From NCBI GenBank assembly GCA_963930775.1, contig OZ005695.1, forward strand, positions 4,712,001-4,776,000: a stretch of DNA of 64,000 nucleotides. The letters are read 5' to 3'. The position numbers were made by a program, and so were the translations under genes. Positions within the stretch are counted from its first letter, which is position 1. Each line of letters starts with the position of its first letter. The stretch comes from Cliona cf. orientalis (Eukaryota; Porifera; Demospongiae; Clionaida; Clionaidae). Shown here in pieces: positions 2,190 to 55,700 of this stretch. The notes beneath the pieces are model-generated. The model saw nothing but the letters and a program-made list of their open reading frames with translations. It was not told the DNA's origin and did not search any database.

Positions 2190-2218
2190 ATATTATGTTT
2201 TTTGCTGTTCCCTCTCAG

Positions 2219-30700: not shown

Positions 30701-33700
30701 AATGTAGCACCAGCAATACTTGATATTCTGTACCAGAAGCTTAGTTTATAAACAGTAACCTCTAACCGCTCATAATGACGTGAGTGCATTATAATAATAA
30801 TGCATAATAGGTTACCAGTATGGTCGTGTTCCTTGGGGTGATGCTGACATCACTTGCTTGGTGGATGAAAATGGCACTCCAAAGTTCTGCCTACAGGAGC
30901 TTTGCAGCAAGGTATATCATCATACATGTACATTGGATGGTATGATGCTTGTACATGTACATGTGCATACATTTGGAGCAATACCTTTGCTTGCTGTACA
31001 CTAACTTTACATAACGTGTCATTCATCATTATCTTTGGATGTTTGGTTAGGTTCTTCGTAACCAGGTGAAGGCAGATGTGTTTGACATGGTGAAGAACTT
31101 GAACCTGCCAGTGCTGCAAGGTGACACTGCTCTGCTAAAGAAGCTACAGGCTCTTGGCCTGCACTCTAACAGGTGAGGTGAAGTACACTGGGCTAGTTAT
31201 AGCAAGTCTAACACTCTCCAGGTGATTTATCAATTGCTCTGTAGGGGTATATACTACGGTTCATCCCATCCATGAGCCACTCAGGTGGGTAGGGAGATTT
31301 TAACCAGTCCTAGTTTTCCACCTTTGTGGCTTGCTATTTGGTTGATTAGGTGGTTCCCATAGTAGGAAGTGTAGAATATTACATCCCGAGTCCCAATCAA
31401 CAAAAAAATTCGGCCAGCCTATGAGGTAATTATGAGATAATTGATAATAAAATTGCTGTGAAGGCTGTTTCAAAATATTTACATGTAGCTTGCATGACAG
31501 GGTGTTGGGACCCAGAATTTGAACCTAGCATATGGATGAGATACGATGATTCTCTCAGTTCCCTTTCTTAGGCAAGCTCATACTCTGGGGGGATTTCTCT
31601 ATTCAGTCTAGCACATGGCAGGTCGAGATCACGCCTATCACAAAAATTTTGTGAATGAACCACTGGCCGAAGTTCACCTTCCATGGATAAATAGAGCTCG
31701 CCTAATTGTGCTATATATAGCATCATGCATGCTGCGTGCCATGCCATGTACGACCCGTTCTGAAGTTTGGAAGTTGTACTGCACAGTCGAGTTCATCTCC
31801 TGTGATTGAAGTATTGAAACTTGTCACTGTCGAGGTCGAGAGTTGGTCTTAGACTCGATTTAGGTGCCAGCATTGATGTGGTTTGTAGACTGTGCACGCA
31901 CTATGTCGACGACCTTTTACCATATTCACCATAGCAAATGCATTTGTAGCCACCCATAGCAGCAGCATGCACTGGATATGTGCTCTTGGCAACTCATAAT
32001 TGTTCATCATGATAGAATTATAAATAAGAATGCTTTTTTCTTTAATTTATGTTATATACATCACAACTTTTCACTGTGTGCGTTTGTAGATCTCCAATCT
32101 GTCGTTTGATAGCTGCTGAGGAGCTGTGGACTCTACTGGATGCTCTGCAAGAGCCAGTACCAGCCGAGGTTCACCAGCACCTGGAGAACATAAGCTCTTC
32201 AACAACACCACTGCTAGTAAGTTACCAGTACTACTGTTTTTATCAGGGTACATGAATCTGTGAGGGAATGTATTATTATGGTATCAAGAAAATTGGATGT
32301 GCAGGTGCACATGCAATAGAAGTTAGTACACAAATGACCTTTCCCTTCCCCTCCCCCCTCTCCCTCTTCCTCTTCCTCTCCTCCCTCACTCCCTCCCTCC
32401 CACCCTTCTTCTCTCGTCCCTTCAGCAGTCTCCGTCTCACACTGCTGGTGTTTCTGCTGCTGCTGTTGCTACTAGTTCTGCTGGTCCAGTGCTTCACAGT
32501 CCTGGTCTGGTGGCTGGTGGGCCTAGCCTCATCGAAGAAGATGAGCATGGTGAGTTAATGAGCTCAAGTATTTGATTAACTAAGGAATCATGTGGTAACC
32601 AATGATCAGTAACTACATCCAATTACCAATATGGTTTATTCCACATCAGTTGTGTTTTTATGCTAAAATTTAATTGTTTGGATATTATGATTAACAAATT
32701 GAACAATTCCTTATGTCACTAATATTTGTAGGTTTTACATGTGTGATTACCAGTACACACATTTTTTTATTAGTATAGCGGTGTACACTCTAGATTTTAA
32801 TCTCTAAATTGATCGTAGGTCAATGCATGTGGATGATATATATGATCCTGACGTACACCCCTGACATACATGTACATACATGTATCCATGCATCCAGGGT
32901 TCCAGTCCACCCTGCATGAGATGGAGTGCAGTGATGGTCAGTACATCAGCATCCTTCGTACGTGGAATGGTGAGCAGTATGCCTGTCTGACTGAGGTCTG
33001 GAGGAAATACTTCCCCGAGGTGAACAGGAACCACCTGACCAGTGCCCTCAAGAGGCTCGGCCTTGACACTCACATGCCAACTGGCCAACAGGCCACCCTG
33101 CTGAGATCAGCAGGAGTCATCTCTTTAAGGTAAAATATTATTATTACTGACTCTACAAGTATGTTTAATGTCACAATCATGGGATAATGTGGCTAGCATG
33201 CATGATCATCTATTAACAGTACATGCTCATAAAACATACAGACATGGTTCCTGCACATTGACAAGGGTGTAGCCAGAAATTTTTTATACTGAGGCAAGTA
33301 ATAAAGATTGCGTGCGAAGCGCGCGCGAAATTTTAGCCACGCTCCCTTTGTGGACAAACCACGCCCATTTTCGGGTATCTACCGCGATCGTAGCAACGTA
33401 AAAAGTCTTTTCGAGTCTAGAACAGTGCGCAAAGCCGTTTTATCAACGTTACTTACATCATCTCAGAGAGAGACATCCGTCTTGCTCTCTTAGAGATGGA
33501 GCTATACTGCGATAATTTGAGTGCTTAGTCAGCAAACAAACTTGTCATGGCATGCACGCGGCACGGTGAGTGTTGTTATGTATTTAAGTATATAGCTGGC
33601 TAAATTGATGACCGAGGCAGCTGCCTCGGTTGCCTCAATGGTAGCTACGCCCTTGCATTGACAAACAGTATCCTGCCTGTCCCATTAGTACCGTGCGCAT

Positions 33701-35880
33701 GAGCAGATGTAAGCGGTTGCAGAGGCTACACCCCTCATAGCAACCAGCTCCAACCATGTTGTAAATGTGCAATGGTGATGTTCTCACTCTGTTCGAACAT
33801 TGCTGCCGGACTACTGACAGGTATGATAAAGAACAGACCTCGCTTCTTGCTTTGCTCGAAGCTCGGTGGCTAGCGCCAGCGCCTACTTAGCAGGCCTTTC
33901 GAAATACACAGCGCTTTCGCGCCAATCGTTCAACAAGTTGTCATCGTGTCTCTAGCTGTAGCTATGGCCCGAGGCATTAAGGCTACTCTTCTTTGTGCAC
34001 ACGGCCCTACAGTTTTGACCAATCCTGAGCCTTGTAGTGCGGACTTTCTCTCCGTCCGCGCCGCACGTTTATAGCAAATGGGCGCATCCAAGACGCATAT
34101 CCATGCCCTCATGTAATGACACAGACTATAATATAAGAACAGTGACGGTCTGAAAAATACTTTTCGTTGTATAATATAGTATAATTACAGAGGAGCTCCT
34201 TTATTCCAGACACTGTAAGTCAGCTTGAAATGTTCTGGGTAAAGGAGGTATTTGGTATTATTTTTGTGTGTAGCTGGTACATTGCATGGTGTTTTGATTG
34301 AGAGATATCAATGGCCTTGGTGCAGTGGTAATACTTTCAAATATGCTTTAGTGCTGTGTATGCATGTGGGCATTTTACTACTGTTCATCTACTATGGTTT
34401 TTCAATCATAGTATTCGAACATATGGCTATTATTGTTCACAGTATGTATACACTATGTCCATAGGGGTGCCGCTGGTCGTCTTATGAGGCTGGAAGACAC
34501 CCAGACACTGTTGGATGACTTTGGTATTCCTCTTCAAATCAGCCCCTCCTCTGACTCCAAAGAGAAACCTCCTGCCACAAATGTACGTCAAAATCTATCA
34601 CCACTGCACCATATTCTATTGTCATACAGCAGGAAATATTCTAGGGAGAAAACATTGCAGTTTGAGAGCCATCCATGAAAATTTTCTCCATGAAATTTGG
34701 GCATGCCCCACCCATGTATACAATTGGTTTAGCATTCCACGAATGTTTTCTCTACGAAATTCTCACTTCCTACTGATTCGCAAAAGTTTTCTCCCTGGAA
34801 TGTTTCTCGCTATACAGTAAATTAGTATTGTTGGAGGATGAAATGATGTGTGAGTGGATAATTTTATACAATGTATGGGCTTGTATACAATACTGATCAG
34901 AAGTTGACATGCAGCAAGTAGTTTGTGTGTGTGTGTGTGTGTAGTGGGAATCATGCACGTTATGTACGTATGTACACATGCGCCTGAAGTACTCCTTGTT
35001 GTTGCAGGCCCCTCCCCTAGCCCCTCCCCGTCCCACGATGAAATTTAACTCGGGTGCCTCTCTGCCGCCTCATATCTCCAGACGCAAGATGAGCGCTCCT
35101 GGCAACTTCACCAATCACCTGGTCTCCACTGCTATCAAGACTGAGCCTGCTCAAGGTAGATGACAGCAATGCACCTTCATATCCAAGGGTTTCCAACATT
35201 TTATATACACATGTACATGTACTAGAAACCAGTGGGAAGCTGGGTACGAGAGTAACTAACAGTATATGAACTGTTGCATTAGTGTTGGTGCAGGCCATGA
35301 AACTACAAATTTGATAGCATGTTATTCAGTACCCCTCTATATAATAGATATATGTATTGTTATGGTCTAGTCACATTGTTCCATGCGTGCAATGTTACGT
35401 ATAATTATCTCCATGCAGACACATTGCATGCTGAGTGTATGCGGAACATCCTGGCTGCCATCAGCTATGATGATCTAGTGGCCTTACTGGAGAAGTCTCG
35501 AGATGAGGCCCTCTCGTCTACTGGTGGGATTGATGAAGATGCTGATGGTGTGTATGTGTGTCTCCCTCCCTCCCTCTCTCTCTTCCTCTCTCCCTCTCTC
35601 TTCCTCCCTCCTGTCTGCATGACTGTGTGGTGGATTGATGAAGGCAGCTTGCCTTAATACCATTGTATTGTCCACAGCAGTTGCTAGTGAGCTTGATGGT
35701 GTTCAGCAGTTGATCCACTCCCGGAGAGAACTGTGCAACATCCTGAGCAGTGAGATAGGTTACCTCACTGCCTCCAACCATGCCTTCATGGCCGAGGTGG
35801 TCAGACTCAATCACTCTGGAAAGCAAATTATCCAAGATTTAGAAAGTTCTTTGCTGGCATTCAATATCATTTTACAATAG
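13633..35880 (+). CDS. Giant nuclear protein with zinc ribbons and two Ski/Dac-like modules (22 exons)
   Basis: Exons: 13633-18733, 18892-18993, 20732-20863, 21382-21432, 21850-21929, 25842-25959, 26229-26392, 27923-28088, 28361-28520, 28949-29239, 29709-29944, 30212-30375, 30502-30658, 30811-30911, 31051-31172, 32090-32216, 32426-32549, 32898-33129, 34465-34582, 35008-35155, 35419-35547, 35678-35880. All junctions are GT-AG and phases agree, giving 8,226 nt and 2,741 residues. Order: cysteine-rich module (about 155-216), long S/T/P and acidic disorder, basic tracts, a globular part at about 1778-1971 (KLVLYSVKL, YRVVLLVPL, VHVLKRMGGM), zinc ribbon (about 2122-2200), Ski-like modules (about 2308-2424 and 2466-2582), and a helical C-terminus. 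Ski/Sno/Dac domains are winged-helix-like folds of animal transcriptional regulators, so a chromatin or transcription role is inferred. I know no orthologue. Its 3' half is duplicated at 55-64 kb. Confidence 0.85.
19062..20013. mobile_element. Inverted-repeat transposon starting CAGTGGAACC
   Basis: The ends CAGTGGAACCTCTATCCC and GGGGTTCCACTA are inverted. About 100 bases further in, TTTATGGTTACGGGTGATAG matches CTGTCACCCGTAACCTTAAT inverted, so the arms extend about 130 bp. CAGTGGAACC-type ends occur in pogo/Tigger-like elements, but no transposase frame is present and the family is uncertain. A smaller foldback element sits inside. Confidence 0.6.
19217..19433. mobile_element. Foldback element nested in the 19062 transposon
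   Basis: ACCTTAGTGTCACTAAAGTT and AACTTTAGTGACACTAAGGT are perfect inverted ends. Between them 'atcgctaaatta' or close variants occur four times on either strand. About 217 bp, non-coding. Confidence 0.75.
20559..20730 (+). repeat. 170-base C/T-only tract leading to a splice acceptor
   Basis: Almost every base between 20559 and 20730 is C or T (CCCTC and CCCTCC units), ending in the CAG acceptor of the exon at 20732. It is far longer than a normal polypyrimidine tract and can form triplex DNA by mirror symmetry. In other frames it yields spurious Pro/Ser/Leu-rich open frames. Confidence 0.9.
21977..22478. mobile_element. Third TACCGTAGTGTCCCAGG-family element, split by a nested transposon
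   Basis: The ends TACCATAGTGTCCCGAGTAA and CCCAGGACACTACCGTA belong to the family at 2004 and 11245. Removing the nested element at 22026-22346 restores an element of about 180 bp, like the other copies. Confidence 0.75.
22026..22346. mobile_element. CAG-ended transposon with 5-bp target duplication CTGGC
   Basis: The ends CAGTGGTGTGTCCAGG and CCTTGGACACGCCACTG are inverted. CTGGC is duplicated at 22021-22025 and 22347-22351. The inside carries 'gcgcaaaattttaagccacgcccc', shared with the elements at 33262, 51050, 55701 and 59469. Non-coding, 321 bp. Confidence 0.85.
22800..23050 (+). repeat. Dispersed repeat with a GACGACCTTTACC-type end
   Basis: 'ctgtgattgaag', 'tcggtcttagac' and 'ttgatgatcctttaccctatg' match the order of blocks in the repeats at 31390, 47345 (reversed), 53240, 53780 and 62100. 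The last two blocks occur twice within it. Family D in this annotation; class unknown. Confidence 0.6.
23141..23906 (+). mobile_element. TTAA-family element with intact TTAA target duplication
   Basis: TTAA at 23137-23140 and 23907-23910 flanks an element that begins CCCTCGGCGCATGCGCGAGG and ends GTGCTCGAGAGAGCTCTAG. TTAA duplications are typical of piggyBac and Kolobok transposons. No transposase is encoded, so this is a non-autonomous derivative and the best-bounded member of the family here (766 bp). Confidence 0.75.
24010..25230 (-). CDS. Cysteine-rich multipass membrane protein nested in an intron
   Basis: An uninterrupted 406-codon frame runs from ATG at 25230 to a stop at 24010. Hydrophobic helices lie at about residues 15-40, 150-170, 236-262, 296-315 and 328-346. 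A cluster of about a dozen cysteines (CGCGCCCLCCCNCC, residues 66-79), next to basic residues, looks like a juxtamembrane palmitoylation patch. Between helices 2 and 3 a loop of about 60 residues has four cysteines (about 179, 187, 211, 228) and an NSS glycosylation site, suggesting a disulfide-bonded extracellular loop. The C-terminal tail is acidic and phosphorylatable. I do not recognise the family. The gene is intronless and antisense to the host gene's 3.9-kb intron, which suggests origin by retroposition or a nested lineage-specific gene. Confidence 0.7.
   Translation of the reverse strand: MAKLPLLVFTRLRIIPQVILIEAYILTKVFFVLFEILTTFWRQKVARAHPNYSVCCLVAYCSGMVCGCGCCCLCCCNCCRRKPGTWSTALTYYINLITRINCYFVKLLLGPGAIVSRKSAMYKPKKDVDKYGVSKIYLRNKELSHREVSAFAVITFTFGLIVLVAVWNQVLQERIMGTCSVEVGTSCYPQLSDNSSAVDFAMPTDQPIDDCSYWNSESVSNYVEGFQCFQLRFDLLAILSRFGGLLSLMLLVLRTTFSLALATIDSTFENFLQSSDDKKCWYKTKLNSLVAIVKTGRIFLAFIAYSIELLAISIIQRRLISSPNFQVGFEVVLVIGLLTSSLLLPLEEYSLAQDQARGGVTPLSWQQSVDRQTIQSPEEDDENDSFRYHKLQSFDSVDYQRDVSEA
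26461..26707 (-). mobile_element. TTAA-family fragment, reversed, in copy A only
   Basis: It begins CTAGAGCTCTGTAGAGCACA and ends with gacagacaaaccgattgc and ccggtgcgcgca, as in the reversed copy at 42571. It lies within the 460 bases absent from copy B. Confidence 0.6.
27431..27846. mobile_element. 416-bp foldback element in copy A
   Basis: The two halves are imperfect inverted repeats around a centre near 27640: CGCACTATGC pairs with GCATAGTGCG, CCCATGAGTGTTCTC with GAATACTCATGGG, and TTAAGGCTATAATTATTAGG with its complement. It is non-coding. The copy B version (about 56200-57937) has extra DNA at the centre and a further insertion. Confidence 0.8.
29709..29944 (+). other. Zinc-ribbon exon of the large gene
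   Basis: This exon encodes four cysteine pairs in about 55 residues: FCPDCG, CKKCPTCGKRF, KLCPGCG and ACYECGH. The spacing suggests two adjacent four-cysteine zinc ribbons. The first half resembles the UPF0547-type pattern (C-x2-C, a few residues, C-x2-C). It parallels the N-terminal module in exon 1. Copy B (60640-60875) has Ser in place of the second Cys of CPTC. Confidence 0.7.
30811..32216 (+). other. First Ski/Sno/Dac-like module (three exons)
   Basis: Residues about 2308-2424 read FCLQELCSKVLRNQ, then KNLNLPVLQGDTALLKKLQA and GLHSNRSPICRLIAAEEL. The order of hydrophobic and polar positions follows Ski/Dach domains (CLPQVLNSVL, then QL..LK.LGI, then APSCGLIT..DA.RL). The family assignment is by pattern recall and needs a profile search. 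Exons 30811-30911, 31051-31172 and 32090-32216; copy B exons 61522-61622, 61762-61883 and 62800-62926 keep the frame. Confidence 0.6.
31390..31960 (+). repeat. Family D dispersed repeat in an intron
   Basis: 'atgaggtaattatgagataa' near the start, 'ctgtgattgaag', 'gaaacttgtcactgtcgagg' and 'cgacgaccttttaccatatt' near the end match the repeats at 53240 and 53780. It accounts for most of the 0.9-kb intron between the Ski-like exons and is present in copy B at about 62100-62680, so it predates the duplication. Confidence 0.65.
32898..34582 (+). other. Second Ski/Sno/Dac-like module (two exons)
   Basis: Residues about 2466-2582 include YISILRTWNGEQYACLTEVW, then HLTSALKRLGL, QQATLLRSAGVIS and GRLMRLEDTQTLL. 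This repeats the same order as the first module (core cysteine or leucine helix, an L..LGI-like helix, then a GxLxxxED/DAxxL segment). Exons 32898-33129 and 34465-34582. The first is intact in copy B (63616-63847); the second would lie beyond the window. Confidence 0.55.
33262..33655. mobile_element. CAAGGG-ended transposon in an intron of the large gene
   Basis: The ends CAAGGGTGTAGCCAG and GGTAGCTACGCCCTTG are inverted. CATTGA (6 bp, extendable to CATTGACA) flanks both sides. The interior has gcgcgcgaaattttagccacgc, linking it to the CAG-ended group. Copy B starts the same element at 63980, so insertion predates the duplication. Confidence 0.8.
34622..34818. mobile_element. Foldback element in the intron after 34582
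   Basis: TACAGCAGGAAATATTCTAG followed by GGAGAAAAC is mirrored by GTTTTCTCCCTGGAATGTTT and CTCGCTATACAGTA. About 197 bp, non-coding. Confidence 0.6.
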
Positions 35881-36391
35881 GAAATTATTGCTGTTTCTCC
35901 TTTCCTTTGTGTTTCAATTTTCATATTTCCCCCTACTTATCAGATTCTATTATTATGATGTTATTAAAAAAAGCTTGTTGAAACTACTATCGTGGGATAC
36001 GAAAATAATAAGCTTAAATCTCTTAAATTTAAGGGTGTGGGATTGACATAATAATAATATTATTACCGGTATTATGATAACAAGTTTTGATACTATACTG
36101 TCTATTTAAAGCATAAAATCAATTTATAGCTATCGGTGCATTAATATGAATACCAGTATACGTGAGGGGTATGGCCTGTTGACCTCGAGTTTAGATCCTA
36201 GTTGTAACAAATACTGTTATCTGATTGGTCAGGAGCAGGTATCTATTTCTCATATAAACCTGTAAAAAGCTCATATAAACCTGTAAATTTTTCATATAAA
36301 CCTGTAAAAAATTGTTGCCTATGGTTAGGATTGTTGCTAGGCAGCAGTTTATATGTCAAGCCTATGGGCATTGTTGCTAGGATCTAAAGTT

Positions 36392-36526
36392 GTTAGACAC
36401 TGTTTAGTCGGTTCTACGTGATTTAGAAGACCTCAGGGCTCAGTAGAACCCTCGCTTTGCTCGGGATTCTACATAGAGCCCTTCGGTCTTCTAAATCACA
36501 TAGAAACCTCCTAAACAGTGTCTAAC
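36392..36526. mobile_element. 135-bp foldback element
   Basis: GTTAGACACTGTTTAG and CTAAACAGTGTCTAAC are inverted ends; inside, GTGATTTAGAAGACC pairs with GGTCTTCTAAATCAC. The centre carries 'agaaccctcgctttgctcgg', similar to 'agcaccctcgctgtggtcgg' near 41985. Confidence 0.8.
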
Positions 36527-36997
36527 TATTATATATAGTATAGCTGTAGAAGATGTGGGGTACAAAGGACCTATATTATAGCTACTTGCGTTTGCTGTTG
36601 AAGCCTAAACCTAATGTTGAAGTACGAGGTAATTCAGGTGCAGGTCAAGCCCAGGGTACTAGGGTATGTTGTAGAAAGTTAATGAAATCGGATTAAAGAG
36701 GGGTAGGTGCCACCACTGTCTAAAGAACAAGAGATCGCATGCAGTACACCTCTTTTGGGTGCTCTGAATGAAGAGTGAGACTGTAAAACCACCTGTTTTG
36801 CACTGTATCACAACTATTGACATTATAGCTATGTGTATGTTACTGTATACGTATCTAATAGTATACTTGTACTTTGATGTGTACAAATCTTGTATACCAA
36901 TTACAAGTATTACAAGTGAAATAGGCACCTGAGTTTGAAATACCCTTCTGAATTGAAATACCTATCTGACTTTGTGTATGTATACTATTAGCCTGTG

Positions 36998-37149
36998 ATA
37001 GTGAGGTTGTATGTTGAATTTGGATAAATAGCACTCCGAAATAGGCATTTGGTTCATCAAATTGTACTCGCTATCGCTCGTACAATTTTTGAACCAAATA
37101 CCTATTTCAGAGTGCTATTTTACCCAAATTCAACATACAACCTCACTAT
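36998..37149. mobile_element. 152-bp foldback element
   Basis: ATAGTGAGGTTGTATGTTGA pairs with TCAACATACAACCTCACTAT, and the arms continue inward to GAACCAAAT/ATTTGGTTC with a short loop. It borders the left arm of the large inverted repeat. Confidence 0.8.
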
Positions 37150-37365
37150 TACCTATACTAATTATCTGTCTGTATTATACTATGTATGGAATCTATGAAT
37201 GTATTATGTGTGTTATTGAAAATACAATAATATTATTGCAACTGATATTAATGATATTACAGTATACAAGCTGCAACATAATTATACAGATATTTTGTAG
37301 CTTTGGAACAAGATTTAAAATGTCAACTGTTAGCAGAATGTGTTCTCGGTATACGGTATAGTTCT

Positions 37366-38907
37366 CTAAACAATAGGGTCATTATCAATGCGTGCTTGCC
37401 TCTCTCGTAGCACATCACAAACACTGTGTCTGGAACTCTCTTCAAGTGACTCCGTCCATGCTTTAAGGCTCGCATCATTCATTTCATAGTTAAAGACAAG
37501 TTCGTTTAAAAATCGTATCTGCTTTATTTCATTTCCGTGGCGATCGTTCTCCTTAAGCTTGTGTATTTGAATGCTGCTTGAGTGACAGAGAGCACAATAA
37601 ATCAACACTCCTAATTGTCGCCAGTCAAGATCAGCCACTGGCCGTCCTAATCTCCGTTGGTAGAGAAAAGAGGCACTGTACTCGTCAACAAAAACTTTAG
37701 ATACATGATGCACCCGATCCAAGTCTACGAGTCGCACATTACCATCTCTGGTGAAGCATATGTTTGGAAGCCTTACATCTAGATGAGCCCATCCAAGGCC
37801 GTGCAGTCTTTGTAGTACTTGCACGACTTGCTGCACAAGATCACCAAGGCAGCTTGCTGCATCAGCCCTGCTTAGAGGCTGTTCGTCCTGAGCCTCAAAC
37901 ACGAAAAAAGAACACTCCTCTATCATCAGAGGAAAGCCTGTTGGAACTACAACTCCATCAATCGCTCGTGAGCGCGGCAGACTGAAAAGAAATGCAGACA
38001 CTCTATAACTCTCCACCAATCTCGGAATCATTTTATAGAAGAACCTTGGACTTTTCAGAATGATTGAAAATTTGGATTGAATTTGCTCCAGTTCATCAGT
38101 GTTCGTCAGTTGTTCGATGTTTCTGTCATTTACCAGGTGACGGAATCGATCGATGTCTTGATGTGAAAGACGAATAAAGAAATGCTCATCTCGGCTTGGT
38201 GGTGTCATTAGATGATGTAATTGATTCTCAACAACACGCTTGACGGTGTATTCTACATCAGGCTTTCTCAAGATGTCAAACTCGACTTTAAAATGAAAAT
38301 TATCCCACAGAACCTTAACTTGGGTCACACATGCTGAATTACTGATTGTACATCCATCAGTAGTTTCCTTAGGCAACTTTGGAAAAACGAAACCATAGAC
38401 CTCATAAAACTCAGGATAAAAGCAGCGCAACAAACGGAGTTGATCGATCAGGTTGGCAACACTTTTTGCAATGGTATTTTCGTACAGTGATGAATGCACT
38501 TCCAAACAGAACAGGGGAAGGTCGAATTTACTCGTGGATAGTATAACACCATCAGGTTTAACAATTAACGAAGATGTAAGTGGCTGTAAGTGGTTTCTGT
38601 ATGCATCAATGCGTCTGTCTGCAGCGACTCTTACAGACAAGCCAGAAACATTCAACAAATTCACCGTATACTGTACTGCTTGCTTTTCTGATGGGTTTAA
38701 GTTCAAGGATTCGTCAATTGTTGGACCACTGTAATTATTGACAGGAAGTTCACTGAGATTGTATTTCTCTTCTGTAGTAAGACTTTTGAACAATGTAGTG
38801 AAGTCTGTAAAGGTCACGTGGATCAAGGGATTCTGAAACACGTCACTCTTTGGTGTTAGGTCACAAGAAGATCCAAAGCTCTCTGAGTGCGCCCCTTCAT
38901 CTGCCAT
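37366..38907 (-). CDS. PD-(D/E)xK nuclease-like plus protein-kinase-like protein, left arm
   Basis: A single uninterrupted frame encodes 513 residues starting MADEGAHSES. Residues about 110-175 contain KPDG (D119), CLEVH (E136, with His where the nuclease lysine usually lies), then NLIDQLRLLR (Q156), the order expected of a PD-(D/E)xK restriction-nuclease fold. Residues about 320-440 look like a protein-kinase C-lobe: AHLDVRLPN (catalytic D377, N382), LVDLD (DFG-like, D395) and DLDWRQLGVLIY (a DVWSLG-like motif). HRD is HLD, and no clear glycine loop or VAIK lysine is visible. Nuclease-kinase fusions are known in the Crinkler/CR class of eukaryotic effectors; function here is inferred. Upstream of the ATG, TTTCTCCAG suggests a 5' UTR intron. 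Confidence 0.75.
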   Translation of the reverse strand: MADEGAHSESFGSSCDLTPKSDVFQNPLIHVTFTDFTTLFKSLTTEEKYNLSELPVNNYSGPTIDESLNLNPSEKQAVQYTVNLLNVSGLSVRVAADRRIDAYRNHLQPLTSSLIVKPDGVILSTSKFDLPLFCLEVHSSLYENTIAKSVANLIDQLRLLRCFYPEFYEVYGFVFPKLPKETTDGCTISNSACVTQVKVLWDNFHFKVEFDILRKPDVEYTVKRVVENQLHHLMTPPSRDEHFFIRLSHQDIDRFRHLVNDRNIEQLTNTDELEQIQSKFSIILKSPRFFYKMIPRLVESYRVSAFLFSLPRSRAIDGVVVPTGFPLMIEECSFFVFEAQDEQPLSRADAASCLGDLVQQVVQVLQRLHGLGWAHLDVRLPNICFTRDGNVRLVDLDRVHHVSKVFVDEYSASFLYQRRLGRPVADLDWRQLGVLIYCALCHSSSIQIHKLKENDRHGNEIKQIRFLNELVFNYEMNDASLKAWTESLEESSRHSVCDVLRERQARIDNDPIV

Positions 38908-38942
38908 TATCAGTCCTGGAGAAATAAAGGTAAGAACTATAA

Positions 38943-39327
38943 TACCGTATTCGCTCGATCAGACGTCGCTCTCGATTAGTCGCTACTCTCGAATAGTCGC
39001 CGCACCTCCGGAAGTGCTGAACGAAATAGTTGCCGCTCTCGAATAGTAGCCGCGCCACGCCCACTATCCGAGAATACTAGCACGTGGACATGCCTCGCAG
39101 CTCGTTTTTTCAACGTCAGGTACACGATAGAGTCTAAAACAAGTTCTAACCTTCTACCTACATTAGCAAAGGGACCAGAATCTCCTATGATAAGTGGTGT
39201 TAATCGACCGTTTCTCTAAGGATTGCCTCTCTGGCAGCTACTGGTATTAATAAACGCCTCTCTCGAATAAACGCCGCACAAACTCGGGTGATGAAATAAA
39301 TAGTAGCCGCGGCGTCTGAATACGGTA
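38943..39327. mobile_element. TACCGTAT-ended element 5' of the left nuclease-kinase gene
   Basis: TACCGTATTCGCTCGATCAG and GCGTCTGAATACGGTA are inverted ends; inside, 'tctcgaatagtcgccgc' and related phrases repeat. The same element sits in the equivalent place in the right arm (44852-45229), so it was there before the arms were duplicated. It ends about 35 bases upstream of the start codon and may supply promoter sequence. Confidence 0.75.
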
Positions 39328-39520
39328 TGTAGGCACAAATGTAATGTGGTGGGATGGTAATACATGGTGGAGAACACATGCAAAGGTATGAGGACATTGA
39401 ACCAAGAGGTCTGGGTCTAGTACGAGTTGCAGCAGTGACTGGCGTACCACAGGCTACTCATATATGATCAATGCATGTTCAACCTTCACTGGTGTTAACA
39501 AAAGCAACACACCACTTACA

Positions 39521-40459
39521 CAGTCTACACTAAGACCACCGGAAGTCCATATACGTACAATACATTTTAATGTCAACGCGCGGTTTGCATGGCGCTTATG
39601 GGGGTTAATGATATGCATGCCATACACGTGGGGTCAAAAATAGTGCATGTCTATGTACAACTGTATCTTCTAGTGTGAGTTAGCTATCGTTCTATCTAAA
39701 GTACCATTGTAAAGAAGAAGAGCTGAGCTTCACATTGATACCAAGAACAAGACTAAGCGTGCCGAGATGACCGAAGTAGACATGAACCAGTTTTCAGCCG
39801 CGTATGGCTGATGGCATCTTTGAATTCGGGGCAAATCTGTAACACTCACACCAGCACTAGGGGACTTGGTCCACTAGTAGGTAAGTACCAGGGCAGTTAC
39901 TCCGTTGAATCCCGAGTCTTCCAGGGTCACCCAGCCACCACGAGCGCTCTTTGAAAATCTAAAATAATTTATCACTTTAGCCTGTTTTATTTTCTTGACA
40001 GTAGCTAGCTAGACTGTCAACTAAAGAAAATACTGAACTTTAGCTACTAAATTAGCTATGTTATAGCTACCAACTCTTCGTCTTGAGTACTTTCTTCCTG
40101 ACAGTTCAACTCGCTCGTCCATTTCTTGATCTTTTCTGGCTGAATGGAACTTTGAATTCGGGGCAAATCTGTAACACTCATTCCAGAACGAAAAACGAGG
40201 CATCCTCGATGTCTATACCATAGTGGCAGTGTATAGCAGTAGCGTGGAACAGAACCGCTCGAGGCGCTTCGAGAAACGAGCCTTCGAAAATGAGAAAAAT
40301 TCATTCTGTCCTGGGTAGGGCGCGGTACACGGATAGATATACGGACGTATACGAGATTATTGCGTGTACCTGCGTAATACGTACGCGCGCGTGCGTAATC
40401 ATACGCAGGAAAACATCATTTCCGTTTTGCCATTAAACGGTAGGTCTTAGTGTAGACTG
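39521..40459. mobile_element. CAGTCTACACTAAGACC-ended transposon, left arm only
   Basis: The ends CAGTCTACACTAAGACC and GGTCTTAGTGTAGACTG are perfect inverted repeats. TACA flanks both sides (39517-39520, 40460-40463). The right arm has the uninterrupted site (CCCCTGTAAGTGG near 44649). Two direct copies of 'tttgaattcggggcaaatct' lie inside. No transposase was found. Confidence 0.85.
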
Positions 40460-41104
40460 TACAGGGGAAAAAATATAACTAGAGGTACTCCAGGCATCTC
40501 GGAGAAGATAGCAACTAAAGCAACCAACATCATATGCTTGAAAACCAAGACACAGATATGTAGTCTGCTTATTCTAAATAATGCACATCACGCTCTGATC
40601 CGGGAATGTTGAACTTCTCATTAATAGGCAGTGCTGGTGTACAAGTTGAATGCGCTGGTATATCAGCATGAGAAAATTTAATGCTGAGCATGACATGCAA
40701 TGGTCTCAAAATGCAAGTATGTTTACTAGGCACATGGCATAATATTATTATGTGATAGTGGAGCTGAATGGTGGTGCCAATTTCAAAATTTTCCATACAC
40801 AACCCTATCTAATTTAGTATCATATCCCTTTAGACACACACCTGTGGAAATACACCTACCTTCTTTCTACAGTTTTTAATATAGCAAACATACAGTGATG
40901 GTATCGCGTGTAATTTGATTAAACTTCCCACACAAGATTACACAGCAAACACATACAAGCTAGTTTTTCATAAGCCCCCAAATCTTCCATTCTATTATAT
41001 GCCCAGATGGTGCTGATCATACACTATCCATGTGCATGCGTATACACGTAGTTTACAAACTACTCAACTCAACAGCGTAAAACTTCTACAACAACGCTTT
41101 AAAA

Positions 41105-41271
41105 ACGCAGTGTCTAGAGTGCTGGCAAATCTATGTACAAATTTATATTGCCATATGCAGGAGGGGGCGGGGACTAGGGCCACGTAAGAGTATAGCATTT
41201 TATATGGACTTACTGGCACTATAACACTTAAAATTGCAGTGCCGGTACCGGCACTGTAGACACAGCTAGCA
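41105..41271. mobile_element. hAT-like MITE with 8-bp target duplication CTTTAAAA
   Basis: CTTTAAAA occurs at 41097-41104 and 41272-41279. The uninterrupted site appears at about 43549 and, inverted, near 43913. The ends carry imperfect CAGTGTCTAGAGTGC-type inverted repeats. An 8-bp duplication is typical of hAT elements. 167 bp. Confidence 0.75.
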
Positions 41272-41377
41272 CTTTAAAAAATCTACCAAGACGCTAGTAG
41301 TGGTACAGTACTCACAATTTTCGAGAAAACCTGGTGTCACGCTCAGGAGTCTCTAGTTGGTATAGGAGCTGACCGGT

Positions 41378-42352
41378 GTCGGAGTATAGTTGGACCCCGG
41401 GGTCCAAAGCTCCAAGGATATTTGGACCCCCGGTCCATTCGTAACGAGGCATGAATGGACCCCCCTATGGATAGAATGACCCCCCTCTCCAAGCTCGCGC
41501 GCGTGCGAACCTGTGCGTTGCTGTTATAGTCAGGCTGCTTGCTCGTTGCTGTCACACAAAATGGATGGGTATGATGAGCTTTGTACCTATCTAGAAAGTG
41601 GTACATATCCAGAACGGTTATCTAAAGATGGCAATATCATATTAATAGCCAATAATACTTGTCTGGCTTGATGCATTCTGATGCGTGGCATAAAAAATCT
41701 ATCTATCTAGCTATCTATGCTTAGCGGAGGTGCTGGGTTGGATCCAAAGCTGTAATAGCTATCAACCTACTAGCCTCGTACCCAGGCCCTTTGAGGAAGG
41801 CCTGGGTACGAGGCTATCAATTAATTAACCTACACGAAAGAAATTCAATGAGATTAATATGGAGAAAATCAAAGCAAAAGTTGAAATGACTCGCTAGTCT
41901 AAGACTAATAGCTATCACTACAAATAGCTACTGTAATCTGATTGGTCACTCAGAGGTCTCTACAAGTTATGAGGCCCTTAGACTTAGTAGCACCCTCGCT
42001 GTGGTCGGGATGCTAGAGCGCTAGCCTCAGGCCATATATACTACTCCATAGATAGTAGAAAGGGTAAAATAGCCTTTCTACTATCTATGCTCGGGCTTAA
42101 AAAGCGTCAAGACCTTGCACTCAGTCTCTATTAAAGTATTATTTAATAGATTGGGAAGGAGATCAAGGCCCATGAGGCCAGGGGTAGTATGCAAACTTCG
42201 ATTCGAAGGGGGGTCCATTCTTCCAGGGAGGGTCCATGGAACCTTAGGATGATTGGACCGAGGGGGTCCAATCATCCTAGTACTATTGGACCCGGGGTCC
42301 CGTAGCGGGGGGGGGGGGGGGGGGGGGGGGGGGGGTCCAATCATACTGCGAC
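41378..42352. mobile_element. GTCGGAGTAT-ended transposon with a long G run
   Basis: GTCGGAGTATAGTTGGACC and GGTCCAATCATACTGCGAC are inverted ends, flanked by ACCGGT (41372-41377, 42353-42358). The uninterrupted site is near 43650 and 43833. The interior has several 'ggacccc(c)gg' phrases, a hairpin (41772-41815), a palindrome around 42050-42090 and about 30 consecutive Gs at 42306-42335. Open frames inside come from these repeats. Confidence 0.8.
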
Positions 42353-42493
42353 ACCGGTAGACAAAAGATCCGTACTGACATGTACACTGGACTAGGGACG
42401 TGGACCGAAATCTGGACGAGTCACTCTTTAATACTTATGAACCGAACGGGTGTACTGTGTTTCATCATAGATCACATAGACTACGTTACGTAA

Positions 42494-43391
42494 TGCACCT
42501 ATCAGTGTCATGCCCCACCTACCCCAAGTCGGGCTAGGGTGGGGGCATATAGGGGTTTTGCATGAATTAACTAGAGCTCTGTAGAGCACATACCCCGCGC
42601 GCACATTGCGCAATCTATAGATTCACTTTCGGTGCATGGCTATGATTTGTGAACTTGAGAGAAATAGCTACTATAGAAATGCTGCTTAGTTGCTCTGGTG
42701 ACACTTAAAACAGCACTCTTTGCACCCAGACTAGGAAGACATGAATTTGTACTTATATTTTGTTGTAATAATAGTATAGCTATCTTACATAGGGGCTTTA
42801 GATTTCAATCATTGTAGACATCACGAGCATTATTTAGAACTTCGACGATCTTTACCAGTCATACGCTTGTTAGTTGTGCGCATGAGCAGAAAGCACAATG
42901 GCCATGCATCATTCATTGATGGGCACTATCGATAGGCGTGGCTACGGTGGCCAACAAAAAGGCACTATTTGTGACGCTTATGGACCGTACCCTCGATTTG
43001 ACGCGCGCTGAAGCCATTTTTTCGCCGTATTCGATTGATTCATTGAGCTTACAAGTCGCTTAGACGCCTACATCTCGAGATATGGCAATTTTTGTGCTAA
43101 CAACAACAACGACGACACAACCGATTACTTTACCCCTTGCGCATGCGCGCGGGGTAATTAGCAAAGTACTTACCCTAGGGGCAACTCTTAGATTCAAAGT
43201 CCCCTATTGTAGATAGGGGATCAGTAGGGGCCTTTGTATAATGATGCTCATATGCGCAGAAGTTACAGGCACAGTACCAAAAGACATGGTACAAATCCCC
43301 AACCCTCGGGACAAATCTTGATACAAACCCCCTACAAAATCCCCTACCTGGCCCGACTTGGGGTAGGTGGGGCATAACAATGATAGGCGCA
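42494..43391. mobile_element. TGCACCTATCA-ended element split by a TTAA-family insertion
   Basis: GCACCTATCAGTGTCATGCC and GGCATAACAATGATAGGCGC are inverted ends, followed inward by matching CCCCACCTACCCCAAG arms. The related element at 46942-47283 is shorter and uninterrupted. A reversed TTAA-family copy (42571-43155) lies inside. Confidence 0.65.
42571..43155 (-). mobile_element. TTAA-family element, reversed, nested
   Basis: It starts CTAGAGCTCTGTAGAGCACA after TTAA (42567-42570) and ends CTTGCGCATGCGCGCGGGG. The right flank reads TAATTA rather than exact TTAA, so one base may have changed since insertion. It includes a 'ttcgacgatctttaccag' phrase related to family D. Confidence 0.65.
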
Positions 43392-44405
43392 TATTAAACA
43401 CATACAAGTCTTGCTACACTTGACCCTTCTAGTTTTTTTATAAAGCCCCAAATCTTCCATCATGCCCAGATGGTGCTGATCATACACTATCCATGTGCAC
43501 GTGTATACACGTAGTTTACAAACTACTCAACAGCGTAAAACTTCTACAACAACGCTTTAAAAAATCTACCAAGACGCTAGTAGTGGTACAGTACTCACAA
43601 TTTTCGAGAAAACCGTCCCGCTCAGGAGTCTCTAGTTGGTATAGGAGCTGACCGGTATAGACAAAAGATCCGTACTGACACGTACACTGCACAGACGGGT
43701 GGACTAGGGACGTGGACTGAGACTCACTTTTTAATACTTAATTTTTGTAACCGACGGGTTAAGGTTGACCTTTAACCTCCCAACTGCGCCCAAAATCAAA
43801 AATCGCCGGATCTTTTGTCCTAGGCTATACCGGTCAGCTCCTAGAGACTCCTGAGCGGGACGGTTTTCTCGAAAATTGTGAGTACTGTACCACTACTAGC
43901 GTCTTGGTAGATTTTTTAAAGCGTTGTTGTAGACATTTTACGCTGTTGAGTAGTTTGTAAACTACATGTACGTGTATACGCGTGCACATGGATAGTGTAT
44001 GATCAGCACCATCTGGGCATCATGGAAGATTTGGGGCTTTATAAAAAAACTAGAAGGGTCAAGTGTAGCAAGACTTGGCTGTGTAATCTTGTGTGGGAAG
44101 TTTAATCCTGGCAAATTACACACAATACTATCACTGTATGTTTGCTATATTAAAAACTGTAGAAAGAAAGTGTGTGTCTGAAGGGATATGATGCTAAATT
44201 GACACATCATGTATCATCAGTATAGTTGCATTGACGTTATCAAAAATTCAAAGTTTTTGTATATTCCCGTAAATTTTCCATGTGCTGTAGCCTGCTGGTG
44301 TACTGTGTATGGAAAATTTTGAAACGGCACCACCATTCAGCTCCACTATCACATAATAATATTATGCCATGTGCCTAGTATAGCGACATTAAACATACTT
44401 GCATT

Positions 44406-44591
44406 TTGAGACCATTGCATGTCATATTCAGCATGAAGTTTTCTCGTGCTGATTTACCAGCGCATTCAACTTGTACACCAGCACTGCCTATTAATGAAAA
44501 GTTCAACATTCTCGGGTCAGAGCGTGATGTGCATTATTTAGAATATGCAGACTACATATCTGTGTCTTGGTTTTCAAGCATGCGATGTTGA
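44406..44591 (+). other. Peptide-like frame conserved between the inverted arms
   Basis: A 61-codon frame here and a 77-codon frame in the left arm (40802-40569, minus) share about 40 residues, including AHSTCTPALPINEKFN and GSERDVHYLE. The base differences are partly silent and partly not, and one arm stops earlier by a single base. It lies in the 5' region of the nuclease-kinase gene. It may be an untranslated exon or a short coding exon; shared descent alone could explain the similarity. Confidence 0.2.
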
Positions 44592-44851
44592 TTGCTTTAG
44601 TTGCTATCTTCTCCGAGATGCCTGGAGTACCTCTAATCATATTTTTTCCCCTGTAAGTGGTGTGTTGCTTTTGTTAATACCAGTGAAGGTTGAACATGCA
44701 TTGATCATATGAGTAGCCTGTGGTACACCAGTCACTGCTGCAACTTGTACTAGACCCAGACCTCTTCAAGTTGGTTCACTGTCCTCATACCTTTGCATGT
44801 GTTCTCCACCATAATATATTACCATCTCACCACATTATATTTGTGCCTACA

Positions 44852-45229
44852 TACCGCATTCGCTCGATCAGACGCCACGGCTACTATTTATTTCATCAAT
44901 CGAGTTTGTGCGGCGTTTAATTCGAGAGAGGCGTGTATTAATACCATTAGTTGCCAGAGAGGCAATCCTTAGAGAAACGGTCGATTAACACCACTTATCA
45001 TAAGGAGATTCTGGCCCCTTTGCTAATGTAGGTAGAAGGTTAGAACTTGTTTTAGACTCTATCGTGTACCTGACATTGAAAAAACGAGCCACGAGGCATG
45101 TCCACGTGCTAGTATTCTCGGATAGTGGGTGTGGCACGGCAACTATTTCGTTCAGCACTTCCGGAGGTGCGGCGACTATTCGAGAGTAGTGACTAATCGA
45201 GAGCGACGTCTGATCGAGCGAATACGGTA
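44852..45229. mobile_element. TACCGTAT-ended element 5' of the right nuclease-kinase gene
   Basis: This is the inverted counterpart of 38943-39327, with ends TACCGCATTCGCTCGATC and GATCGAGCGAATACGGTA. It stops about 35 bases before the start codon and just before TTATTTCTCCAG. Confidence 0.75.
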
Positions 45230-45264
45230 TTATAGTTCTTATCTTTATTTCTCCAGGACTGATA

Positions 45265-46812
45265 ATGGCAGATGAAGGGGCGCGCTCAGAGAGCTTTGGA
45301 TCTTCTTGTGACCTAACACCAAAATGTGACGTGTTTCAGAATTCCTTAATCCACGTGACCTTTACACACTTCACAACATTGTTCAAAAGTCTTACTACAG
45401 AAGAGAAATACAATCTCAGTGAACTTTCTGTCGATAAATACAGTGGTCCAACAATTGACGAATCCTTGAACTTAAACCTATCAGAAAAGCAAGCAGTACA
45501 GTATACGATGAATTTGTTGGATGTTTCTGGCTTGTCTATAAGAGTCGCCGCAGACAGACGCATTGATGCATACAGGGATAACTTCCAGCCACTTACATCT
45601 TCGTTAATAGTTAAACCTGATGGTGTTATACTATCCACGAGTGAATTCAACCTTCCCCTGTTCTGTTTGGAAGTGCATTCATCTCTGTACGAAAATACCA
45701 TTGCAAAAAGTGTTGCCAACCTGATCGATCAACTCCGTTTATTGCGCTGCTATTATCCTGAGTTTTATGAGGTCTGTGGTTTCGTTTTTCCAAAGTTGCC
45801 TAAGGAAACTGCTGATGGACGTATAATCAGTAATTCAGCATGTGTGACCCAAGTTAAGGTTCTGTGGGATAATTTTCGTTTTAAAGTCGAGTTTGACATC
45901 TTGAGAAAGCCTGATGTAGAAAACACCGTCAAGCATGTTGTTGAGAATCAATTACATCATTTAAGGACACCACAAAGCCGAGATGAGCATTTCTTCATTC
46001 GTCTTTCACATCAAGACATCGATCGATTCCGTCACCTGGTAAATGACAGGAACATCGAACAACTGACGAACACTGATGAACTGGAGCAAATTAAATCCAA
46101 ATTTTCAATCATTCTGAAAAGTTCAAGGTTCTTCTATAAAATGATTCCTAGAGTGGTGGAGAGGGATAGAATGTCTACATTTTTTTTCAGTCTGCCGCGC
46201 TCACAAGAAATTGATGGAGTTGTAGTTCCAACAGGCTTTCCTCTGATAATAGAGAGGTGTTCTTTTTTCGCGTTTGAGGCTCAGGACGAACAGCCTCTAA
46301 GCAGGGCTGATGCAGCAAGCTGCCTTGGTGATCTTGTGCAGCAAGTCGTGGTAGTACTACAAAGACTGCACGACCTTGGATGGGCTCATCTAGATGTAAG
46401 GCTTCCAAACATATGCTTCACCAGAGATGGTAATGTGCGACTCATCGACTTGGATCGGGTGCATCATGTATCTGAAATTAATGTTGACGAGTACAGTGGC
46501 TCTTTTCTCTACCAACTGAGATCAGGACGGCCAGTGACTGATCTTGACTGGCGACAATTAGGAGTGTTGATTTATTGTGTTCTGTGTCACTCAAGCAGCA
46601 TTCAAATACACAAGCTACATCTTAAGGAGAACGATCACCACCGAAATGAACTACAGCAGATACGATTTTTAAACGAACTTATCTTTAACTATGAAATGAA
46701 TAATGCGAGCCTTCAAGCATGGAAGGAGTCACTTGAAGAGAGTTCCAGACGCAGTGTTTGTGATGTGCTACGAGAGAGGCAAGCACGCATTGACAATGAC
46801 CCTGTTGTTTAG
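45265..46812 (+). CDS. PD-(D/E)xK nuclease-like plus protein-kinase-like protein, right arm
   Basis: This uninterrupted 515-codon frame is the inverted-arm partner of the minus-strand gene at 37366-38907. By eye about 60 of 513 aligned residues differ, plus a two-residue insertion (HL) near residue 452. The nuclease block (KPDGVIL, then PLFCLEVHSS through NLIDQLRLLR) and the kinase catalytic segment (LGWAHLDVRLPNICF) are identical in both copies; the DFG-like motif is IDLD here and VDLD there. An acceptor-like TTATTTCTCCAG ends at 45256, eight bases before the ATG, so a 5' UTR intron is likely. Two intact frames despite 12 percent protein divergence suggest both are or were under selection. 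Confidence 0.75.
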   Translation: MADEGARSESFGSSCDLTPKCDVFQNSLIHVTFTHFTTLFKSLTTEEKYNLSELSVDKYSGPTIDESLNLNLSEKQAVQYTMNLLDVSGLSIRVAADRRIDAYRDNFQPLTSSLIVKPDGVILSTSEFNLPLFCLEVHSSLYENTIAKSVANLIDQLRLLRCYYPEFYEVCGFVFPKLPKETADGRIISNSACVTQVKVLWDNFRFKVEFDILRKPDVENTVKHVVENQLHHLRTPQSRDEHFFIRLSHQDIDRFRHLVNDRNIEQLTNTDELEQIKSKFSIILKSSRFFYKMIPRVVERDRMSTFFFSLPRSQEIDGVVVPTGFPLIIERCSFFAFEAQDEQPLSRADAASCLGDLVQQVVVVLQRLHDLGWAHLDVRLPNICFTRDGNVRLIDLDRVHHVSEINVDEYSGSFLYQLRSGRPVTDLDWRQLGVLIYCVLCHSSSIQIHKLHLKENDHHRNELQQIRFLNELIFNYEMNNASLQAWKESLEESSRRSVCDVLRERQARIDNDPVV

Positions 46813-46941
46813 AGAACTATACCGTATACCGAGAACACATTCTGCTAACAGTTGACATTTTAAATCTTGTTCCAAAGCTACAAAATATCTGTATTATTAT
46901 GCTGCAGCTTGTATACTGTAATATCATATCAGTTGCAATAA

Positions 46942-47283
46942 CGCACCTATCAATGTCAAGCCCCACTACCCCCCATAGGGGCAAGGGTCGGGCATTTCAA
47001 AGTCCATTGACGCAAATTTCGGCCTAAAGGGTGGGGGATTTGACCCAATAGGGGATGGGAGGGGCATTTGATCATGCTTAGTGTGCAGTTATTGCACATA
47101 TACATTAATACACCATTTATTATTGTGCAAGGCAAAGTCAATACACAGCTCCCATGGAACTTGATAAATAGGGGGATTTTCCTGTAATTTTGGCCCAGGG
47201 GGCGGAGACTTTGAACTTCTCGGGTATCAAATCCCCACCCTCACCCCTATGGGGGGTAGTGGGGCTTGACATTGATAGATGCA
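46942..47283. mobile_element. CGCACCTATCA-ended element with TAA duplication, right arm only
   Basis: CGCACCTATCAATGTCAAGC and GCTTGACATTGATAGATGCA are inverted ends. TAA flanks both sides (46939-46941, 47284-47286). The left arm keeps the uninterrupted site near 37233-37245. A 3-bp TAA/TTA duplication suggests the PIF/Harbinger group. 342 bp, non-coding. Confidence 0.8.
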
Positions 47284-47344
47284 TAATATTATTGTATTTT
47301 CAATAACACACATAATACATTCATAGATTCTATGTATATGAACC

Positions 47345-54533: not shown

Positions 54534-54871
54534 CCAACTCTTTTTACCAGCCAATGATGCCGGGAAAGGTTGTCTTACATGTATATTGGATAATAAAAGA
54601 TTAAATACCAGTATGTATACTGATGCATCATCATCAATACACAGTTTAGGCCAATGGCAATATTTACCATATAGCTATATAGAGTGTAGCCTCGTCCCCA
54701 GGCTCTCTTGGGGGAGGGGAAAAGAGGGTCGTATACATGGGATTGATTTAAGTCAAGGATCCCATGGGTTATACATGGGACTGAATTAAGTCATCTACTC
54801 CACGTGTTATACATGGGATTATTTTAAGTCAACTTAGTTTGACTTAAATTGCCGATTTATTAGATGTATAC
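54534..54871. other. Stretch before copy B with short repeats
   Basis: The phrase 'atacatggga(t/c)tga(t/a)tt(a)aagtca' recurs about three times between 54730 and 54840, after a TAGCCTCGTCCCCAGG repeat end at 54691. No gene was recognised. Confidence 0.5.
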
Positions 54872-55700
54872 CTTAATAAACCAAAGTTTATTTACTGAGG
54901 GACCGGGCAATAGCGACATATATTAAATATGTTTGTAACAAGATTAGGAGGGGGCTATGGATATATTAAATATTATTTTGGGATGAGCTGCAAATATTCT
55001 TGTGAAACTTACAACCTGTCACCTTTCTTTCATCTCTCCCCCTCCCTCAGAAATGGATCCCCTGGTTGAGTCTCCTGCCACTCAAAGGTATAGGTACAAC
55101 CCATACACCTCAGAAACCATGGTACAGATGACCTGTACTGTGATGTCACAAAAAAGACATCGGGGTGTGTTTTCTACCTATACTTTACTACAATGCAGCT
55201 AGCTGCATAGAGTTTGTACAAGCTATTTTTCAGGCATCATCATAGTACAAATGTGCAACAAGCGTACCAAAACCATCCTTTGATGTTTATCCACAGCACC
55301 ACGCTTAGAATTTGTTCTAATGATTTACCTGTCATATCGCCCTGCACTATTGCATGGGAGGAGGCTGGTTTGTGATGGTTCCACCTGATGACCCTTACCT
55401 ACTAACAACTATCTGGCAAAAGTGCCTGGGTGGCTTATACACAAGGTATGGGTTAGATTGGTGGTACAATATTAGTTTTATACTATATACAATGAAAAAA
55501 GATGCGCTCTGCTACAAGTTCAGAAGGCCCACAATTGGTCAGAATTGCAGTGTATGTGCACAAACAAGGGTGGCAATAGAGATGCATTCATTTCTTGCAC
55601 AAACGGTGTGAAGCACTGCAAGTTTTGAGAGGCCTGCTCAGCAGACCACGTGCCAACGAGCCTCAAGCAAAGTGAGAGACGAGGTCTGTTCTTTGTCATG

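What the first reader, a model, noticed from the sequence alone, without database searches (positions are those of the whole stretch)
37366..46812. Pair of divergent nuclease-kinase genes inside a 10-kb inverted repeat
Two uninterrupted genes (513 and 515 residues) with a PD-(D/E)xK-like half and a kinase-like half sit as mirror images with their 5' ends facing. Nuclease-kinase fusions are known from Crinkler/CR effectors and related selfish or defence systems. Finding an intact head-to-head pair in an animal-like genome, with a matching promoter-proximal element on each gene, suggests a mobile, toxic or defensive module. Function is inferred.
Basis: partly seen in the sequence, partly recalled or inferred. 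Interest (0 to 1): 0.85.

Follow-up and report, generated by a model that had tools for sequence, protein, structure and literature searches.

The report
Sponge nuclease-kinase genes, mirror-image copies
Two intact copies of an unusual gene that joins a DNA-cutting-enzyme-like half to a protein-kinase half sit as mirror images on what is most likely a sponge chromosome because a stretch of DNA was duplicated and flipped; the genes look real and may help the cell fight foreign DNA, but the pairing itself is probably a by-product of duplication.

Summary
Two intact ORFs (513 and 515 aa, 88% identical) lie head to head in a ~10.1-kb imperfect palindrome (37189-47330; main arm block 93.5% identical, arms broken by small transposons). 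The host is most likely the sponge Cliona cf. orientalis, chromosome 7. AlphaFold2 models (pLDDT 87 and 88) support the domain call: the C-half is a protein-kinase fold with its catalytic residues kept, and the N-half is a PD-(D/E)xK-like fold with conserved Asp and Glu. The canonical ExK lysine is absent; a lysine on the next helix is mostly conserved instead. The pair is not a special module. It comes from local segmental duplication: a third, frameshifted copy lies 20 kb away without a partner, and a diverged subfamily on chromosome 1 has two intact copies that converge. The 'promoter-proximal element' is a ~383-bp transposon found on many chromosomes. Both ORFs stayed open (1 in-frame gap in coding against 32 gaps in noncoding arms) while residues outside the conserved core changed freely. 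Best reading: a host gene family encoding a nucleic-acid-targeting effector with a built-in kinase, like the REase-kinase class of Crinkler/RHS proteins in architecture but without a recognised header. Function, including defence, is inferred.

The parts
37366..38907 (-). Left REase-kinase gene, 513 aa, intact
   Evidence: ORF; one of 6 family loci found in the genome
38206..38697 (-). Left gene, PD-(D/E)xK-like domain (about residues 71-234)
37444..38115 (-). Left gene, protein-kinase-like domain (about residues 265-488)
   Evidence: Pfam Pkinase E 5.8e-5, under gathering; fold by homology to the right copy
45265..46812 (+). Right REase-kinase gene, 515 aa, intact
   Evidence: ORF; AF2 pLDDT 86.8
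45475..45966 (+). Right gene, PD-(D/E)xK-like domain (about residues 71-234; D119, E136, K148)
46057..46734 (+). Right gene, protein-kinase-like domain (about residues 265-490; K292, H375-L-D377, N382, D395)
37189..43635 (+). Left arm of the imperfect palindrome
43636..43840 (.). Central spacer of the palindrome (205 bp)
   Evidence: (I5)
43841..47330 (-). Right arm of the imperfect palindrome
38943..39325 (.). Terminal-inverted-repeat element just upstream of the left gene (the 'promoter-proximal element'); absent at the matching site of the third copy
   Evidence: TIR ATACCGTATTC and empty site; 40 matches scored of 613 candidates genome-wide
44868..45229 (.). Same element upstream of the right gene (92% identical)
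   Evidence: (C7:4756868-4757229)
41372..42358 (.). Element with inverted ends, in the left arm only
   Evidence: 27-base end match with 3 mismatches
42493..43392 (.). Element with inverted ends, in the left arm only
   Evidence: 46-base end match with 4 mismatches
46943..47282 (.). Element with inverted ends, in the right arm only
   Evidence: 39-base end match with 1 mismatch
26043..43644 (+). Unit of the direct segmental duplication that carries the left gene
   Evidence: blastn
54864..64000 (+). Second unit of the direct duplication, running past the window end; it carries the third, frameshifted gene copy at window-equivalent 66831-68364

Best explanation
These are two intact members of a host (most likely sponge) gene family encoding a headerless fusion of a PD-(D/E)xK-like nuclease fold and a protein-kinase fold. 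The mirror arrangement arose by inverted segmental duplication, probably after a transposon had already inserted upstream of the gene. Most likely mechanism (inferred): the N-half binds and cuts nucleic acid with Asp119/Glu136 and a helix-borne Lys148, and the C-half kinase phosphorylates itself or a partner to switch the nuclease on or off. The protein would act inside the cell against foreign or mobile nucleic acid. Shown: the ORFs, predicted folds, conserved residues, duplication pattern and ORF maintenance. Inferred: catalysis, kinase control, defence role.
Confidence: 0.45

Rival explanations
1. Pseudo-nuclease kinase: the N-half only binds nucleic acid (a dead restriction-enzyme fold, like mL65/mL37 in the mitoribosome) and the kinase is the working enzyme, for example as a nucleic-acid-sensing kinase.
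For: Kinase residues are better kept than the nuclease set, and the ExK lysine is lost at its usual place. The best structural matches of the N-half are mitoribosome chains, which a review calls repurposed endonucleases.
Against: D119 in 39 of 41 rows, E136 in 42 of 42, and a helix lysine in 37 of 43 and 23 of 23 rows: more than a pure binding fold would seem to need.
Confidence: 0.25
2. Cargo of, or a gene captured by, a mobile element: the gene spreads with transposons and has no host role (the transposon-to-toxin route proposed for CR proteins).
For: Multi-copy genes in single uninterrupted frames. A segment carrying the chromosome-1 gene lies at sites 13 Mb apart, with about 5.4 kb aligned at 98-99% identity. 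Elements with inverted ends crowd the chromosome-7 arms.
Against: No inverted ends were seen at the borders of the shared chromosome-1 segment, and the gene is its only open frame over 150 residues. The chromosome-7 left and third copies lie in a duplicated unit of about 15-18 kb that also carries a zinc-ribbon gene fragment. Only 6 family loci were found by two queries.
Confidence: 0.15
3. An ordinary host nucleic-acid or signalling enzyme (repair, RNA processing, stress kinase) with no conflict role, copied by random segmental duplication.
For: Family with a conserved catalytic core; nothing scanned in the neighbourhood suggests immunity.
Against: Housekeeping genes rarely (general knowledge) show dN/dS near 1 between recent copies or two broken loci of six.
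Confidence: 0.15

Closest known systems
CR (Crinkler-RHS-type) proteins with REase plus kinase C-termini (Zhang et al. 2016, known here only through PMC5289972)
   Same: REase-superfamily domain coupled to a protein-kinase domain; [quoted passage not shown] nuclease thought to be the toxic part and kinase to regulate it
   Different: No Crinkler model among the Pfam matches of 63 family members scanned; these are chromosomal genes of an animal; sequence kinship with known CR proteins was not tested
PD-(D/E)xK enzymes BpuSI (type IIG), TT1808/DUF820, NucC, EcoRI
   Same: Core fold of the N-half; Asp and Glu of the active site
   Different: Lysine not in the ExK position; fused to a kinase; about 8-15% identity
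Animal mitoribosomal proteins mL65 and mL37
   Different: Ribosomal, no kinase, thought to stabilise rRNA
PAK4 / CHK1-type protein kinases
   Same: Fold and catalytic residues of the C-half
   Different: 9-15% identity; Pfam Pkinase score under its gathering cut-off for both window proteins

Membership tests
PD-(D/E)xK-like fold | Core fold with central mixed sheet and flanking helices | tested here: met
PD-(D/E)xK-like fold | Conserved Asp and Glu of the active site | tested here: met
   D119 39 of 41, E136 42 of 42 rows with a letter
PD-(D/E)xK canonical nuclease | Lysine of ExK two residues after the Glu | tested here: not met
   Residue 138 is H 35, N 4, E 2, D 1 of 42
PD-(D/E)xK nuclease with migrated lysine | Conserved lysine elsewhere in the site | tested here: inconclusive
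   K148 37 of 43, and its counterpart 23 of 23 in the second subfamily; geometry and activity not tested
Protein-kinase-like superfamily | Bilobal fold with VAIK Lys, HxD Asp, Asn and metal-binding Asp | tested here: met
Crinkler/CR effectors | N-terminal header domain (Ubl LxLFLAK type or other) | tested here: inconclusive
   No Crinkler model among Pfam matches of 39 members at E <= 1 and 24 at E <= 0.01; that Pfam holds such a model is recalled, and CR headers vary
Crinkler/CR effectors | C-terminal REase plus kinase architecture | tested here: met
   compared with the description
Crinkler/CR effectors | Sequence homology to known CR REase-kinases | not tested
Toxin-antitoxin or obligate divergent pair | Two different partners kept together in divergent arrangement | tested here: not met
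   Both genes are the same gene; third copy unpaired; chromosome-1 intact copies converge 42 kb apart
Autonomous DNA transposon | Terminal inverted repeats and a transposase around the gene | tested here: inconclusive
   No transposase match among 15 distinct window ORFs scanned of 145 open frames of 75 aa or more; no inverted ends seen at the borders of the shared chromosome-1 segment

The most novel reading that the evidence does not exclude
Animals (at least sponges) keep an intact, fast-changing family of cytosolic or nuclear restriction-enzyme-kinase fusions as an immune or genome-defence effector. It is a headerless relative of the Crinkler/RHS toxins with a helix-shifted catalytic lysine, and its nuclease half is the living enzyme closest in fold to the dead nucleases mL37/mL65 of the animal mitoribosome.
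Probability: 0.12. Interest if true: 0.8.

Novelty: new variant of a known kind. Interest (0 to 1): 0.45.

Why it matters
Nuclease-kinase fusions are discussed mainly as effectors of parasites. Intact, conserved copies in an animal chromosome, kept open while much of the rest of the protein changes, give a testable case that the same architecture serves a host. The N-half match to mitoribosome chains read as mL65/mL37 also offers a lead on where those repurposed endonucleases came from. The palindrome itself is ordinary segmental duplication.

Tried and rejected
Contamination by a microbe or virus: rejected. The genes lie in N-free sequence on a contig of ~10 Mb with an animal-type PROPPIN/WIPI exon at 2191-2460 of the window, and no relative was found in viral contigs (67 pattern hits, none confirmed), genome contigs (16 pattern hits, none confirmed), phages or plasmids; those answers warn that records near the window's own genome may be left out.

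A bidirectional promoter or functional pair: rejected. The facing starts are 6.36 kb apart, the pairing is not repeated at the other loci, and the shared upstream element is a dispersed transposon.

Haplotype artefact: cannot be fully excluded for the direct duplication, since the genome note reports 81 haplotypic duplications removed. But there are no N runs, the copies differ by insertions, and one copy is inverted.

Domain libraries: NCBIfam matched only the kinase part, weakly. PADLOC gave weak matches, 10 of 11 and 11 of 12 to the kinase part; its top row was Orf5 at residues 210-295, E 1.8e-5 and 3.6e-6, which I did not follow up. Rfam gave nothing in the window. Foldseek with the N-half gave nothing at E <= 0.001. 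Of the 50 of 775 rows shown by the viral structure library for the full model, most of those with names are kinases.

Positive selection: suggestive only (dN/dS 1.10 overall, 0.69 N-half, 1.87 C-half; P of at least this many nonsynonymous codons 0.07 overall and 0.08 C-half).
Full report
OBSERVATION. The two ORFs are exactly where stated: 37366-38907 on the minus strand (513 aa) and 45265-46812 on the plus strand (515 aa), ATG starts, 5' ends facing. They are mirror copies inside an imperfect palindrome spanning 37189-47330 with a 205-bp spacer. The main arm block is 93.5% identical over 2,313 columns; the other blocks are 82-96% identical. The arms are broken by insertions, three of which have inverted ends (41372-42358, 42493-43392, 46943-47282). 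The sequence has no N.

HOST. The window is C7:4712001-4776000 of a 216.8-Mb genome in 149 contigs; C1 is 37,495,003 and C7 is 9,989,510 bases. The genome note of the sponge Cliona cf. orientalis gives 217.17 Mb, chromosome 1 of 37.5 Mb and chromosome 7 of 9.99 Mb, each 42% GC (PMC12639293, outline and section 7). I take this as the host; it is an inference from these lengths.

COPIES. A DNA search finds three copies: the pair and one 99% identical to the left gene at C7:4778831-4780364, 2.8 kb past the window end. That third copy is frameshifted, so its reading frame is split into two pieces. It belongs to a direct duplication: 26043-43644 is matched, in order and with gaps, by 54864-69883 (window plus following sequence). 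A protein search with the left copy adds three loci on chromosome 1 at 27-29% identity: two 516-aa intact ORFs at 33.23 Mb (+) and 33.28 Mb (-), 42 kb apart with 3' ends facing, and a broken copy at 19.99 Mb. A search with a distant relative, P0024, returns the same six loci and no others. So six family loci were found, four intact; only the best candidates are scored, so this is a lower bound. The chromosome-1 copies share segments at 98-99% identity: about 7.7 kb aligned between the two near 33.2 Mb, and about 5.4 kb between one of these and the copy 13 Mb away.

THE PROMOTER-PROXIMAL ELEMENT. The sequence just upstream of both genes is a terminal-inverted-repeat element of about 383 bp (38943-39325; 44868-45229). 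Its ends read ATACCGTATTC in inverted orientation. The third gene copy lacks it, leaving an empty site consistent with a TA target. A genome search scored 40 matches of 613 candidates, on 15 contigs. It is a dispersed transposon, present in both arms because it was there before the inverted duplication or was copied between the arms.

ACTIVE SITES. Across 44 aligned rows, gaps set aside, D119 is kept in 39 of 41 (Ala in 2; a further row, P0014, has a gap there), E136 and S139 in 42 of 42, R158 in 41 of 43, K292, H375 and D377 in 44 of 44, N382 in 43 of 44 and D395 in 43 of 43. The lysine of ExK is missing: residue 138 is His 35, Asn 4, Glu 2, Asp 1 of 42. A lysine on the following helix, K148, is kept in 37 of 43 rows (Gln 4, His 1, Asn 1), and its counterpart in the chromosome-1 subfamily in 23 of 23; there the Glu is kept in 21 of 22. 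Migration of the lysine to a helix is a known kind of variation in this superfamily (recalled). Catalysis is plausible but unproven.

FAMILY. The database search gave 41 relatives (E <= 1e-3, of 7,993 scored) for the right copy, 39 at E <= 1e-6 with the alignment, and 23 (E <= 1e-5, of 7,995 scored) for the chromosome-1 protein. The tables give no name or organism for any of them, so the phyletic range is unknown. Profile comparison joins the two subfamilies over both halves (373 columns, E 2.8e-53). In the tree of 42 rows the left copy groups with P0002 (95/95), and the right copy falls outside that pair. No relative was found in viral, prokaryote, phage or plasmid collections.

SELECTION. 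Between left and right copies the coding part has 1 gap opening (6 nt, in frame) in 1,542 aligned columns and the noncoding arms 32 in 1,538 (Fisher P 7e-9; two aligned blocks under about 200 bases were left out of this count, and noncoding DNA may simply tolerate more indels because it is repetitive). No stop codon is seen where a simulation gives 2.85 (P 0.049). But dN/dS is 1.10 overall, 0.69 in the N-half and 1.87 in the C-half, and 60 nonsynonymous codons against 53.8 expected give no sign of purifying selection on residues in general. Changes do avoid conserved columns: 2 of 72 against 60 of 513 overall (P 0.0046; the conserved columns were defined with these two rows included, which favours this result slightly). 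None of the 12 catalytic or near-catalytic positions checked changed. The chromosome-1 pair shows the same pattern with little power (23 nonsynonymous codons against 21.3 expected). I read this as frames kept open and cores conserved with free or diversifying change elsewhere.

MECHANISM. [quoted passage not shown] the primary paper, Zhang et al. 2016, is not held). By architecture the sponge proteins work most likely in the same way: a nucleic-acid-cutting effector under kinase control, here serving the host. Defence is the most likely use, not shown. Alternatives are a kinase with a dead, nucleic-acid-binding nuclease half; cargo of mobile DNA; or an ordinary enzyme. I could not test sequence kinship with known Crinkler proteins and left that step out.

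NOVELTY. A search of the held library for 'crinkler' together with 'Porifera' returned 0 papers; in the other searches that used 'crinkler' no title in the rows shown concerns such genes in sponges. The library lacks most subscription papers and the Zhang et al. paper, so this is weak evidence of absence in print. I class it as a new variant of a known kind.

Noticed in passing
C1:33229000-33238900 (L012), C1:33272000-33281900 (L013), C1:19985000-19994900 (L014): A segment carrying the diverged REase-kinase gene lies at three places on chromosome 1, two of them 13 Mb from the third, with 5.4-7.7 kb aligned at 98-99% identity and without obvious inverted ends.
   Followed up: partly
window 29677-30051 and 60608-60982: Double zinc-ribbon gene fragment (Pfam DZR 3.2e-6) present in both direct-duplication units; a zinc-ligand-like Cys in the first copy reads Ser in the second.
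   Followed up: no
window 13606-18894 (+): Open frame of 1,763 codons; no Pfam match at E <= 0.001.
   Followed up: no
window 2191-2460 (+): PROPPIN/WIPI-type beta-propeller exon (Pfam 1.6e-9).
   Followed up: no
window 24010-25230 (-): Intact 406-aa ORF with only a weak DUF2569-like match.
   Followed up: no
window 38943-39325: Terminal-inverted-repeat element of about 383 bp with copies 86-92% identical on 15 contigs; 40 scored of 613 candidates.
   Followed up: yes
window 48051-48951: Complex tandem repeat array with unit estimates of 81-285 bp.
   Followed up: no
right gene residues 22-239 (45328-45981): Best structural matches of the nuclease-like half are human mitoribosome chains, read from memory as mL65/mL37, a possible hint at the origin of those animal ribosomal proteins.
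   Followed up: partly
residues 210-295 of both proteins: Weak match to a PADLOC model named Orf5 (E 1.8e-5 and 3.6e-6) between the two halves.
   Followed up: no
window just upstream of 38907 (-) and 45265 (+): A splice-acceptor-like stretch (TTTATTTCTCCAG) lies 8 bases before the ATG of both genes, so an upstream exon cannot be excluded.
   Followed up: no
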